From assembly GCA_034687125.1 (NCBI GenBank), contig JAQGBZ010000165.1, positions 62,001 through 126,000 on the forward strand: 64,000 bases of DNA, written 5' to 3'. The notes below the pieces were generated by a model. It was not told the DNA's origin, searched no databases, and saw only the letters and a list, made by a program, of their open reading frames with translations. Shown here one piece after another: positions 54,842-60,800 of this stretch. The position numbers were made by a program, and so were the translations under genes. This stretch comes from Neelides folsomi. Its lineage: Eukaryota > Arthropoda > Collembola > Neelipleona > Neelidae. How positions within the stretch are numbered: the stretch's first letter is position 1; every line of letters starts with the position of its first letter.

Positions 54842-57800
54842 ATGAAATTCCACGTTGTTTTCTCCGTTCTTGCCATCGAATTACTTTGGAATGTCGGAGT
54901 CGAAACGACGATGGATTCTGATACTAAAAATTCTACTAAAGTTTATGTAAATGTAACGGGGGATATTATTCTCGGCGCTTTGTTCCCAATTCATCGTCGA
55001 GGGTATAGGGAAGGATTGGAAATGTGCGGTAGAATACAGGTGACAAAAAATTCGGTTTATTCTTAAATATATAAAATATTATATATTTGATATACATGAT
55101 ATTTGTATACATAAATATAACATATAAGAAATATCTTAATAGAATTAATAGACCTGTGAGTTAATGTATAAATTACATAAGTTAATAGTGGATATAATCT
55201 TATAAATTTTGCAAAGTCTCTTATTTGCTAATAATTACTTTCATTCTTCTTTCACTCCATTTCTTATCTATAAAACATTTAAGAAAGATTTATGAAGACG
55301 CTTACAAGAACTTTCTTATAGGAAAAAAACATTAAGATTTATTTTTATTGTTCCAAAAATCCTATAATGATAAAAAATACATAAACAGAGATACAGTATA
55401 TCCAAATACCATATATTAGCATATCCAATACAAAGCAGATCTTAACTATTTAAACATTAATCTCGATTGTAATAATATTATTTTACAAATATATAACATA
55501 CTATTGTAGGCCAACCCTGTATATTATAATCTAACATACTTTTGTATTATGTCTTATATTATAACATTATATAATAAATAAACGTATACCTATACAGGAA
55601 GTACTTACCTATATAGTAAATTTGAAAATTAATTCGGAAATATAAAATTATCAAATACAATACGTGATCTTGACTCAAATTAAAAGGAAATCCCCCAAAG
55701 TGAAGAATTCTATGAATTCCTAATGAAAATGATTTTTCCAAGTCTTAAGATTCTTCCACTAGTAAATAATAAATATAGAAGTTTTACATTGGCTAATTGA
55801 ATAAATAATTCACAATGGAATTTGCGGATTTTTTATTTCTATTGAATTGAGTTAAATTGGAATATTCGGACTTTTAACATTTTTTTCATTTAGACCCAAG
55901 ACGGGATTCAACCTCTGGAAGCTCTTCTTTATACGATCAATAAAATCAACGAAGACAAAGATATTCTTCCTGGGGTTAATATTGGAATTCTGGCAATGGA
56001 CAGTTGCGATTCGAATATTTATGCTCTTGAACGATCATTAGATTTCATCAAAGGTCAATTTAAAATTTAATTAACTAATTAATTAATTATTCTATAAAGT
56101 TAATTAATGAAGATAATCTCAATTAAATATTTTGTTTTTTTTATTCAATGCTTTTTTTAATGAACCAAGATGTTTACTTACACTGAAAAAAGTTTATTTA
56201 GAAAGTGATTGTTCAAATTCAAACAAGAAAGCAACTATTGATTATTTGTGTCTATAAAAACTTAGAAACTTCAAAGTTTCAATTAAGATTTAATTCAGCT
56301 TTTCCCATCATTTAATAATAAAAGCAAAGTGTTGTTCATGTGACAGTTTCCATTTAAAAGTTAAGGAGTGTTTAAGTGGAATTTATTTGAAAATTTCTAG
56401 GCTTTATTGCCCATACAAATCAATTTCATCAAAGGGAGTTTGAGTGTTCTGACGGAACGGCCGCGAAATTCCTCAATGGAAGATTTGACAAGATTGTGGG
56501 CGTCATTGGAGGACAATCATCCTCCGTTTCCATTCAGGTCATTTTTATTATTTCAATTAAATATTTTCATTACTTATTTTATTTATTAAACCAGGGCAAA
56601 AGCAACTGGAGAATTTAATAGTTAAATATTCAAATAACATGGTTAAAAATATACAATTTAAACGGCCGAATAATTAATTGAATAATTAAATAATTGATTT
56701 CTGTAAGGGCGTGAGCCGATCGTCGGACAATTGAATAAATACAATTTTATTCATTCATTCATTCATAATTAAATAATTGAAATCTGATTTTAAAATCATC
56801 ATTTGTCTTTTAACTCTTTTGAGATCAAAAGTAGTTTTAACAATATTCAATTACTTTTAAATTCTTTAATCTAGATAGGAATATATTGTTGGAGTATAGG
56901 AATTTATATAATATAACATATATGTATAATACATATGTTATATTTGTGCAAGTATTTTTCCCTCCATTGTTATTTGTTTAGTTGTAGAGAGAATTGCTGA
57001 AGAAGATGAGTCGAAGAAAGTAAAGTAATGTTTGCATTTACAAAGTGAGTTTTTCTTCTTTCTTTACAACATTCTTCCCTTTAGCTTTTTCTTATCCCAA
57101 ATAACTCTTTTTACTTTTGATCGATTTTCCTAAACAATGTTGTTTTATTTACTCGGCCAAATTAAATACACACAGATTTGTCAAAAGAACGAAAATGTGT
57201 AAAATAAGTTTAAATAAATACAATTATACGCACAATATGCAGTTTAGATATTTTGACAAATAAAAGTTTTTTTAAATAAATATTAAAATATTTTTATGTT
57301 TAAGGTTATTAACCTTGAGGATCTATCAGTACATGATGATTTAGCTCCTGTGTGAATTTAAATGTCTGATCTTAAGCCTTACTTTAGAAAAATAAGATGG
57401 ATAGAAAAAGGATTGGGGATTACATAAGGATTTCTGGTGAGAATATTTAAGAATGTTTTGAGAATATTTTGGTGTTTTTCTCCAAAGTTGGGAATTCTTG
57501 GTGAAAATGAAAGGTTGAATGAATATGAAAAATAACAGATGAAATTCTTGGGTGGGTTTGGTGAATATTTTCCTGTCAAGGTTTGACAAGTTTTGAGTTT
57601 GAACCGCTGAGCTCATATTTGTTTGACAACGTTTCAGGTGGCGAATCTTTTGCGGTTGTTCCAAATCCCTCAAATCAGCTACATGTCGACGAGTCCTCAG
57701 CTCAGCAATCGAGAAAGGTTCCCATACTTCTTCAGAACTGTTCCTTCCGATATCAACCAAGCCCATGCAATTTTGGAAATTCTAAGGTTTTTAATTCAAT

Positions 57801-60800
57801 TTATTCATCCATGTGATTTATGGTTAAGATTCATGATAAGGAGTTTACATAAATAAGCATATGAGCATAATATTTAACATTGAATATCAATTATTTTTAT
57901 TTTTACTTTTAGCTTAATTAATAACTAAGTAAGTTTTTAATTATTATTTGATTAAGCTTCAGGCTACAAATTGTTTTGAAACATTTTTGTTAAGTTAAAA
58001 TTTGTTGAATGCCGAATAAACTTTTCATAAATTGCCACAACCAAAATTAAAATGTGAATTTATTCTTATTCTTATAAAAGTTATTTTTATCCGAATTCTA
58101 CGTCTTTAATTGACCTAAATGTGATTTTTAATTTCAAATCTTCATACTTTTGAAAGTTTAATTAAAGTTAAACAAATTCATTCCAATTAATTTATACTTT
58201 TTATTTTCTGTGTAAAAGCTTCCACTAAATACTGCGACGTTACAAGTTGGCTCTATCTTAAATAAAAATTTAAAAAATTGAACGGAATTGAACTTAATTT
58301 CATTAATAGTTAAATAATTAACCTAAAAACTTTGTTTTGTCATTGAGAAAAACAGTTTTAGCATATAAAGTATTTAACTTTAGTAGTAACTTTATCTTTA
58401 TTTGGGAATCTTTGATGAATTATTTACAACAGATTCAATTACATTACAAATGCAACCAAACGCTTAAAGCGCAGTAAATTTAAACTCAACACGGGTTTAT
58501 AATTAAAACCCAAGATCGGATTTAATTACAAGTTATGAGGAACAAGCGCGTCACAAAAGTTTAATGAATTGTTGAGACATTTGGGGATCTCAATTTAATT
58601 AATTTCTCTTTAATCTTCTGGTTAGACATTATAATATTTGGGACTACGTGGCTGTGGTTTATTCCGATTCCGAATACGGAGTCCATTGCTATGAAACTTT
58701 AAGGGACGTTGCTGTGAATCATTCCATCTGCTTCACGACACCTCAGAGAGTCATTCGAGATCAATTTGAACCAAAGGATTATGATCAGATCATTAAAACC
58801 ATAAAGAATAAAAACATCTCAGGTTGGTAATTAAATTAATCATTTAATCATACACTAATTAATACATTAATTAATCACAATTTAAATAATTTTATTAATT
58901 TTTCCAGTCATTATTCTTATATTGGAAAAGGAATACACAAGTAAGTTATTTACCGATTTGAGGTCTATGAAAAATTTCTACAAAATTTCTACAAAAAATT
59001 TATGAATGTTAATTTATAAATAATTATAATTAAATATTAATTATAAATAATTATAAATAATTGTTTTATTAGTGATGTTGATGAGCGCTGCTCGGAGATT
59101 GAATGTAGGCCATAAATACGTTTGGCTTGGGACCGATTTACTCCACGGCGTTTCAGAGGTACTGATATATCTTTAATTTTGATCTCCCTTAAATCCTTCC
59201 TATAATCCCTCTGTACAAGGTGGGCCATAAGTATCTTTCGTTTTTAAATAAGCAATCGCATAAAATAGAAAGATACTTATGGCCCACTCTGTATAATCCT
59301 CATCCCGGTCCTTCCTTCCTCTCTTTAATAATAAGATAAGATAACAAGGTATCAGTTGGTTCCGGGTGGTTTTAGAAGCTTTTATAGCATCAAATTACAA
59401 ATTCCCTTTCACTTACCTTTCATTCAAACACATCTCTTTTCCTTTCTTGTTTTCTCTCCAAAACCTCAAATCCATCCAAACCTTTCTTCTTCATCAAAGA
59501 ACCTATATTTATTAAACTATTAATTACACATTAATTATATGATTAGTAATTAAATCACAAGTGTATTACCTAAATTAATTCGTTTTTACACTATTAATAC
59601 ATACTAACCTAAATACATACATAAATAGTACTTACACTAATAACGACATTATAAACTCACACTCATACATATATATCCACATTATTTTATGCTCTTACAT
59701 AAATATACTCTTACTCTTTATATTATACTCTTACACTGTACACATACCATTTTTGATATATATTGTATAGATAAGGTATAAGATATATTTAAAGAAAAAG
59801 CCCGCATTGGTAAAAGTTTTGATGAAAAGGAAAACTCATTATCCAATTGAACGACTCTTTGCGGAGGTTTAAAAACTTATTTGGTCTTAATGGAAGAATT
59901 GTGGATTAATTTCAGGGGAACGAAGATATCATGGAAGGAGCGATTGCCATTCAACCCCTGGTGAGCCATGTGGAGGGTTTTGATCATTACTTCAAGGAAT
60001 TGAATCTAACCCACAACGAAATCAACCCTTGGTTTAAAGAGTTTTGGGAGGATAACTTCGAGTAAGCAAAATTATTTGACCTCGTTGGTTTTCCATAAAA
60101 ATTTCAAGTTCCATTAAAACTTCCATTAAAATCTGGGACTTCAATTTCTATAAAAAATAAGGAAATTCAACTTCGATTAAATTAAAGAAATAAATTAAGG
60201 AAATAAAATAAGGGAAAAATATGGGAACTTTTGCCGCATCGCAAATAATCAAATGCAGATAAATTTTTGGCTTGGAATTTGATTTTGAATTTTCTTTATC
60301 TATTGGATCGGTTGATTTGTTTGATAATTGACGGGAATCATTTTCCCTTTCCAAAACAGATGTAATTTGACGAGTGAAGTGGGAAAGAAATGCGCGGATG
60401 GGTTGAAGATCGGCACGAACGATACTTACAAACAGCAGTCTTTTATTCATTTCGTGAGAGATGCGGCTTACGCTTTCGCCTATGCTCTCCACAATATTCA
60501 TATTGAGAGGTGTAATGGAAGTTATGGGATGTGCGAAAAGATGCAACACATCGATGGATTGGAAATTTCTCAATATTTGCAAAATGTCACTTTCAAAGGC
60601 AAGCAAAAAATTTCCATACAATTTAATATATATATTAAATATAGTATTTAATAATGCATTAATTGTACATTCTACGAAATTTCATGTTGATTTTATGAGT
60701 TTGTTGATGAAACCTTAAATAACGTTTTAATTTGCATGAACAATTAAATGTAATTTAACTAATAATTAATTTCAAATCGATAAAGGAATTTTTAATTATT

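What the first reader, a model, noticed from the sequence alone, without database searches (positions are those of the whole stretch)
55894..60598. Receptor has lost the glutamate side-chain contacts but kept the amino-acid backbone contacts
Read against mGluR1, the Ser165/Thr188/Asp208/Tyr236/Asp318 positions are kept (S160, T183, D203, Y232, D313), while Arg78, Arg323 and Lys409, which hold the gamma-carboxylate, are Pro73 (codon 55912-55914), Val318 and Gln431 (codon 60544-60546). Tyr74 and Trp110 equivalents are both Asp. This matches the insect mXR/mangetout class, reported as insensitive to glutamate and responsive to L-canavanine. The ligand here is probably an amino acid other than glutamate. 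Because the pocket lining may differ from insect mXR, its ligand could be undescribed.
Basis: partly seen in the sequence, partly recalled or inferred. Interest (0 to 1): 0.8.

Follow-up and report, generated by a model that had tools for sequence, protein, structure and literature searches.

The report
Orphan cousin of glutamate receptors
This springtail-like genome carries an intact receptor built like the brain's glutamate receptors but with a rebuilt binding pocket, on an old branch separate from the fruit-fly mangetout receptor, and its natural trigger is unknown.

Summary
The gene is real: 16 exons, 934 residues, window 54842 onward, ending 1,320 bases past the window. Two corrections: Lys409 corresponds to Phe397 (60442-60444), not Gln431, which aligns with mGluR1 Lys443; Arg323 falls in a shortened loop and is a poor marker.

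It is a class IV mGluR (class named in 2018) but not the mXR/mangetout receptor. Class IV splits into two old branches (99/96 and 99/97). One holds mangetout, including this genome's own mangetout gene on contig C230; the other holds the window gene. Placing the window gene with mangetout is rejected. The pockets differ at sites 74, 78, 186, 292, 293 and 409, so L-canavanine pharmacology cannot be carried over.

The window branch has Lys/Arg at site 293 in 119 of 122 relatives, so glutamate insensitivity is likely but unproven. The window copy lacks the otherwise invariant Trp320 and needs RNA confirmation. Four glutamate-type queries found no class I-III mGluR in this assembly.

The parts
54842..55039 (+). 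exon 1: start codon, signal peptide region, start of ligand-binding domain
   Evidence: spliced model; tblastn with Folsomia P0121
55894..56053 (+). exon 2: Asp69 (Tyr74 site, 55900-55902), Pro73 (Arg78 site, 55912-55914), Asp105 (Trp110 site, 56008-56010)
56401..56537 (+). exon 3: Ser160 (Ser165 site, 56520-56522)
57638..57786 (+). exon 4: Met181 (Ser186 site), Thr183 (Thr188 site), Asp203 (Asp208 site)
58626..58822 (+). exon 5: Tyr232 (Tyr236 site, 58675-58677)
58908..58940 (+). exon 6: Glu287 (Glu292 site, 58925-58927), Lys288 (Gly293 site, 58928-58930)
59073..59158 (+). exon 7: Asp313 (Asp318 site, 59135-59137) and the divergent Leu314-Leu315 where relatives have Gly/Ala/Ser-Trp
59916..60061 (+). 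exon 8: ligand-binding domain
60360..60598 (+). exon 9: Phe397 (true Lys409 site, 60442-60444) and Gln431 (mGluR1 Lys443 site, 60544-60546); followed by a GC donor
60805..60927 (+). exon 10: end of ligand-binding domain
61651..61778 (+). exon 11: start of cysteine-rich domain
62632..62652 (+). exon 12: 21-base micro-exon, two of the nine cysteines
   Evidence: by eye against Orchesella P0010
62898..63069 (+). exon 13: rest of cysteine-rich domain, start of first transmembrane helix
63245..63681 (+). exon 14: 7TM domain; exons 15 and 16 lie past the window (L010 2528-2766 and 2981-3320)

Best explanation
An intact class C GPCR of mGluR class IV, in a branch that separated from the mangetout/mXR branch before arthropods arose. 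Mechanism, inferred from homology: a dimeric Venus-flytrap domain closes on an alpha-amino acid held by Ser160, Thr183, Asp203, Tyr232 and Asp313; closure passes through the cysteine-rich domain to the 7TM domain and probably a Gi/o-type G protein. The distal pocket has lost Arg78 and Lys409 and is lined by Asp69, Asp105, Glu287, Lys288 and Phe397 instead, so glutamate should bind poorly and another amino acid should fit. Shown: gene structure, residue identities, tree position, separate mangetout paralogue. Inferred: folding, dimerisation, coupling, glutamate insensitivity and the kind of ligand.
For: Open 16-exon model with all three domains. Class IV 100/99 and window branch 99/97 with 21 pocket and loop columns removed (same groups in the 72-row tree). 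Window with Folsomia and Orchesella 100/100. Own mangetout gene on C230. Backbone contacts kept while Arg78 and Lys409 are replaced, which is the published class IV description (PMC6307864, section 10 read). A class IV receptor, fly DmXR, does not respond to glutamate (PMC2695807, passages).
Against: Lys288 could supply a new positive charge for an acidic ligand (Lys/Arg at site 293 in 119 of 122 relatives). Recalled, not seen: Funada 2004 reported that honeybee AmGluRB binds labelled glutamate; if AmGluRB is P0175 this contradicts glutamate insensitivity for the branch. The Leu-Leu loop in place of Gly-Trp is unique to this copy. No expression, structure or ligand data were obtained.
Confidence: 0.7

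Rival explanations
1. It is the springtail orthologue of insect mXR/mangetout and senses L-canavanine or the same endogenous ligand.
For: Shares with mangetout the loss of Arg78 and Lys409, the kept backbone contacts and Asp at site 110.
Against: A separate mangetout gene lies on C230 of the same genome and groups with mangetout 100/100. Window-with-mangetout is rejected, p-AU 9.9e-52. Sites 74, 78, 186, 292, 293 and 409 differ between the branches.
Confidence: 0.04
2. The receptor still binds an acidic amino acid, possibly glutamate: the lost cations of lobe 1 are replaced by Lys288 on lobe 2.
For: Lys/Arg at site 293 in 119 of 122 relatives of this branch and in 0 of 43 mangetout-type and 0 of 143 class I-III-like proteins. 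Site 293 is a known selectivity site in vertebrate mGluRs (recalled). Recalled AmGluRB glutamate binding.
Against: Asp69, Asp105 and Glu287 line the same region and may simply pair with Lys288. The non-arthropod relatives of the branch lack Lys/Arg at 293 (0 of 8). Whether AmGluRB belongs to this branch was not settled.
Confidence: 0.2
3. The window copy is losing ligand-gated function: the loop next to Asp313 is remodelled, with the otherwise invariant Trp320 gone.
For: Trp320 in 122 of 122 window-branch, 43 of 43 mangetout-type, 143 of 143 class I-III-like and 12 of 12 non-arthropod class IV proteins with a letter there; Leu315 here. The aberrant Nephila P0084 also has Leu.
Against: The frame is open over 16 exons, the five backbone contacts are kept, and the end branch (0.41) is like those of Folsomia (0.40) and Orchesella (0.34).
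Confidence: 0.1
4. The Leu-Leu loop is an assembly or gene-model fault at the end of exon 7, and the real protein has the usual Gly-Trp...Arg loop.
For: The change sits at an exon end, and a mobile hairpin element lies about 55 bases downstream. One assembly only.
Against: Leu-Leu follows Asp313 directly inside the exon with no GT between, and tblastn with the Orchesella and Folsomia loop peptides found no alternative exon in the 18 kb scanned.
Confidence: 0.1

Closest known systems
mGluR class IV (Ramos-Vicente et al. 2018, eLife, PMC6307864; section 10 and passages seen)
   Same: Domain plan, kept amino-acid backbone contacts, Arg78 and Lys409 replaced, outside classes I-III in the tree
   Different: The text seen treats class IV as one class; here it splits into two old branches with different pockets. 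It also says the two sites become non-polar or acidic in all class IV proteins, whereas Lys409 is Gln in 43 of 43 mangetout-type proteins
mXR/mangetout (DmXR; Mitri et al. 2009, PMC2695807, passages seen)
   Same: Class IV; Asp at site 110; loss of Arg78 and Lys409
   Different: Separate branch; mangetout type has Gly74, Ala78, Phe186, Ser292, Asp293, Gln409 where the window has Asp, Pro, Met, Glu, Lys, Phe; a mangetout gene exists beside it in the same genome
Arthropod proteins named metabotropic glutamate receptor 2/3/4/6 in databases, e.g. Folsomia P0121, Apis P0175, Homarus P0196
   Same: Members of the window branch
   Different: Named after vertebrate glutamate receptors although Arg78 and Lys409 are absent; Folsomia and Orchesella keep the Gly-Trp...Arg loop that the window copy lacks
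mGluR classes I-III
   Same: Fold, domain plan, backbone contacts Ser165, Thr188, Asp208, Tyr236, Asp318
   Different: Glutamate side-chain clamp Arg78/Lys409 absent

Membership tests
mGluR class IV | Ligand-binding, nine-cysteine and class C 7TM domains in one protein | tested here: met
   PF01094 222.7 bits, PF00003 225 bits; PF07562 34.4 bits, under its 38.9 cut-off, but nine cysteines present by eye
mGluR class IV | Arg78 and Lys409 replaced, backbone contacts kept | tested here: met
   Pro73, Phe397; Ser160, Thr183, Asp203, Tyr232, Asp313
mGluR class IV | Falls in a clade apart from classes I-III | tested here: met
   100/99, 99; class I is represented by mGluR1 alone, ligand-binding domain only, used as outgroup; no CaSR or GABA-B in the tree
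mXR/mangetout | Groups with mangetout proteins | tested here: not met
   p-AU 9.9e-52; own mangetout gene is C230
mXR/mangetout | Mangetout pocket (Gly74, Ala78, Asp110, Phe186, Ser292, Asp293, Gln409) | tested here: not met
   Only Asp110 shared; window has Asp, Pro, Asp, Met, Glu, Lys, Phe
mXR/mangetout | Response to L-canavanine, none to glutamate | not testable with these tools
   Needs expression
Glutamate-responsive mGluR (classes I-III) | Arg78 and Lys409 present | tested here: not met
   Pro73 and Phe397
Glutamate-responsive mGluR (classes I-III) | Response to glutamate | not testable with these tools
   Needs expression; a replacement role for Lys288 is not excluded

The most novel reading that the evidence does not exclude
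Class IV is two receptor systems, not one. The window branch is an orphan amino-acid receptor system kept in springtails, many insects, crustaceans, myriapods, chelicerates, annelids and a nemertean, and perhaps amphioxus. Diptera, Lepidoptera and Coleoptera seem to have lost it, and Hymenoptera seem to have lost mangetout instead, so the fruit fly could not reveal it. Its conserved arthropod pocket implies one shared, still unknown ligand. In this springtail the two class IV receptors may be the only mGluR-type receptors, with no glutamate-type one left.
Probability: 0.3. Interest if true: 0.75.

Novelty: new variant of a known kind. Interest (0 to 1): 0.5.

Why it matters
My lists hold 123 arthropod-type proteins of this branch, and the named ones I looked at carry glutamate-receptor names, yet the only class IV pharmacology I found comes from the paralogue mangetout. 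If the two are separate systems, which amino acid this branch senses is an open and directly testable question. Work would have to start in bees, cockroaches, crustaceans or springtails, because flies, moths and beetles seem to lack it. Class IV is reported absent from vertebrates (PMC6307864), so it is an arthropod signalling route without a vertebrate counterpart.

Tried and rejected
I made the same mistake and corrected it against 1ewk; the last column is not Lys409. Rejected: mangetout orthology. Rejected, as far as the assembly goes: an alternative exon with the usual loop. Rejected: a single arthropod-specific origin of both class IV branches (p-AU 2.7e-65), with the caveat that the groups were named after a first tree had been seen. 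Not settled: the place of amphioxus (p-AU 0.034 for putting it with mangetout).

Rows dropped: Nephila P0084 from all trees as aberrant; 21 further rows from the careful tree, long branches among them (51 of 72 rows kept). The 72-row quick tree shows the same groups. Class labels come from the best BLAST hit to the tree rows, not from a tree of all 322 proteins, and the set includes partial and chimeric database proteins.

Led nowhere: the paper search for AmGluRB/AmXR returned unrelated papers; the residue-name search gave nothing beyond PMC6307864 that I used; one search gave only a reference entry. Mitri 2004 and Funada 2004 were not seen; I know them as cited or recalled.

Limits on absence: each protein search scored only about 8,000 candidates and listed 120. 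The genome searches cover one assembly of 840 contigs whose completeness is not given. Family searches show other class C or ligand-binding-domain loci (for example C325, C29, C124, C58) that I did not classify.
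Full report
What is there. The exons in the finding belong to one gene. I spliced it from the window and the adjoining 6.1 kb of the same contig: 16 exons with consistent phases, GT-AG introns apart from one GC-AG donor after exon 9, 934 residues, from 54842 to a stop ending at 65320 (1,320 bases past the window end). Pfam finds the ligand-binding domain (PF01094, 222.7 bits) and the class C 7TM domain (PF00003, 225 bits); the nine-cysteine domain scores 34.4 bits, under its cut-off of 38.9, but nine cysteines are there by eye. 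The closest full-length match is from a springtail, Folsomia candida (61% over 91% of the query); the springtail Orchesella dallaii is 64% over 73%. The genome, 75 Mb in 840 contigs, is therefore probably that of a springtail (inference).

The residues. I aligned the protein to the chain sequence of PDB 1ewk (mGluR1), whose numbering held at 17 of 17 sites checked. Gln431 is not the Lys409 site: it aligns with mGluR1 Lys443, while Lys409 is Phe397 at 60442-60444. I first made the same error. The Arg323 site lies in a loop that is shortened here, so Val318 is not a safe equivalent. It is also a poor marker: only 3 of 143 class I-III-like proteins in my lists have Arg there, whereas 43 of 43 mangetout-type proteins have it. 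What remains is solid: Arg78 is present in 143 of 143 and Lys409 in 141 of 143 class I-III-like relatives, and both are absent here.

Which receptor it is. Loss of Arg78 and Lys409 with kept backbone contacts is the published description of mGluR class IV (PMC6307864, section 10 read). The tree, built with 21 pocket and loop columns removed, places the gene in class IV (100/99 with 51 rows; 99 with 72 rows). Class IV then divides in two. One branch joins arthropod mangetout (100/100) to hemichordates (99/96). The other joins the window gene, with Folsomia and Orchesella (100/100), to other insects, crustaceans, myriapods and chelicerates, then to annelids, a nemertean and amphioxus (99/97). 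Forcing all arthropod class IV into one clade costs 121 log-likelihood units (p-AU 2.7e-65) and forcing the window gene into mangetout costs 476 (p-AU 9.9e-52). The groups were named after a first tree, and amphioxus is weakly placed (p-AU 0.034 for putting it with mangetout). Class I is represented only by the ligand-binding domain of mGluR1, used as the root.

Why the first branch is mangetout. Database names say so for Rhynchophorus P0221, Amblyomma P0251 and Haemaphysalis P0258. It holds 5 of 5 dipteran class IV proteins in my lists. The fly mtt primers printed in PMC10815649 (passages) encode NPWFVE, found in the four dipteran members compared and not in the two window-branch or two mGluR proteins compared, and TTKERL, matched at 5 of 6 by Bactrocera and Teleopsis members.

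The same genome has both. Rhynchophorus mangetout finds a gene on C230 (70979-98374, minus strand): 10 of its 14 matches there are 63-75% identical, the other four 38-57%. Pieced together it groups with Orchesella cincta P0260 (100/100). Of ten arthropods for which I grouped two or more proteins, nine have at least one of each branch (Amblyomma, Tachypleus, Centruroides, Uloborus, Homarus, Palaemon, Lycorma, Homalodisca, Argiope); the tenth, Oppia, showed a window-branch and a glutamate-type protein. In my lists 47 of 47 hymenopteran class IV proteins are of the window branch, and 19 of 19 from Diptera, Lepidoptera and Coleoptera are of the mangetout type (isoforms counted apart). This suggests reciprocal loss, but the lists are capped and absence is not shown.

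No glutamate-type receptor found. Fly mGluR P0053, fish mGluR3 P0082, fish mGluR8 P0031 and beetle mGluR P0276 return C165 and C230, plus C135, C210 and one C124 exon at 21-41% identity. C135 reaches E 1.6e-14 with P0082 but matches the 7TM part only, at 25% identity. The completeness of the assembly is not known.

The pocket (proteins with a letter at the site). In 123 window-branch proteins, site 74 is Asp/Glu in 113 of 116, site 78 Arg in 0 of 117, site 110 Asp in 112 of 121, site 293 Lys/Arg in 119 of 122, and site 409 Lys in 0 of 120 (Phe/Tyr/Trp in 89). In 43 mangetout-type proteins, site 74 is Gly in 39 of 41, site 78 Ala in 37 of 41, site 110 Asp in 41 of 41, site 293 Asp in 43 of 43, site 409 Gln in 43 of 43. 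In the 8 proteins classed as non-arthropod relatives of the window branch, site 293 is Lys/Arg in none and site 110 Asp in 3 of 7, so the pocket signature is an arthropod one. Both arthropod branches thus share Asp110 and have lost the glutamate clamp, but they rebuilt the distal pocket differently. The L-canavanine response (EC50 0.5 mM for DmXR, PMC2695807, passages) was measured on the mangetout type and cannot be assumed here. PMC3646046 (passages) also reports that others found Gr66a and Gr8a involved in canavanine detection.

How it most likely works (inference). Venus-flytrap closure on an amino acid, then Gi/o-type signalling; the G-alpha-o protein is needed for canavanine detection in flies (PMC3646046, passages). 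Asp69, Asp105, Glu287, Lys288 and Phe397 favour a polar or cationic side chain over glutamate, but Lys288 leaves an acidic ligand possible. The recalled claim that honeybee AmGluRB binds glutamate (Funada 2004, not seen; cited in PMC8597283, passages) would be counter-evidence if AmGluRB is P0175, which I could not check.

A feature of this copy alone. Site 320 is Trp in 122 of 122 window-branch, 43 of 43 mangetout-type, 143 of 143 class I-III-like and 12 of 12 non-arthropod class IV proteins with a letter there; the unclassed Nephila P0084 has Leu. Here it is Leu315, beside Leu314 and a shortened loop at the end of exon 7. A tblastn scan of the 18 kb around the gene found no other exon with the usual loop. 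It is either a real remodelling next to the ligand-binding Asp313 or a fault of assembly or model; RNA would decide.

Novelty. Class IV is known, and this gene is a new member. Its branch, separate from mangetout and with its own arthropod pocket, is not described in the passages I read, and searches turned up no paper on subclasses of class IV in their listings. Subscription papers and the figures of PMC6307864 were not available, so its tree may already show the split. A lobster and crab nervous-system transcriptome study sorted six mGluR sequences per species into classes I-III (PMC5096308, passages); its 1,027-residue lobster mGluR2 is probably the mangetout-type P0245, which has that length, and its mGluR3 probably the window-branch P0196 (inference).

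Noticed in passing
window 59212-59300 (intron 7): A hairpin-like short mobile element about 55 bases after exon 7; near copies at about 40 places in the genome among the 40 of 308 candidates scored.
   Followed up: partly
L010 2250-2335 (intron 14, past the window end): A second short element with inverted ends (acagggtg...caccctgt), seen by eye only.
   Followed up: no
own genome G000:C230:70979-98374, minus strand: This genome's mangetout/mXR gene, with Asp where most insect relatives have Lys/Asn next to the conserved LCxxM motif (not the Lys409 site) and the full mangetout pocket.
   Followed up: yes
own genome G000: No class I-III (glutamate-type) mGluR was found with four queries; possibly a real loss, possibly an incomplete assembly.
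   Followed up: partly
protein hits P0268 and P0269 (hemichordates Glandiceps and Saccoglossus): Class III-like receptors that keep Arg78 but have Leu at the Lys409 site, another possible change of ligand.
   Followed up: no
window 48077-48346: An open frame that looks by eye like a Ddi1-type aspartyl protease exon; not searched.
   Followed up: no
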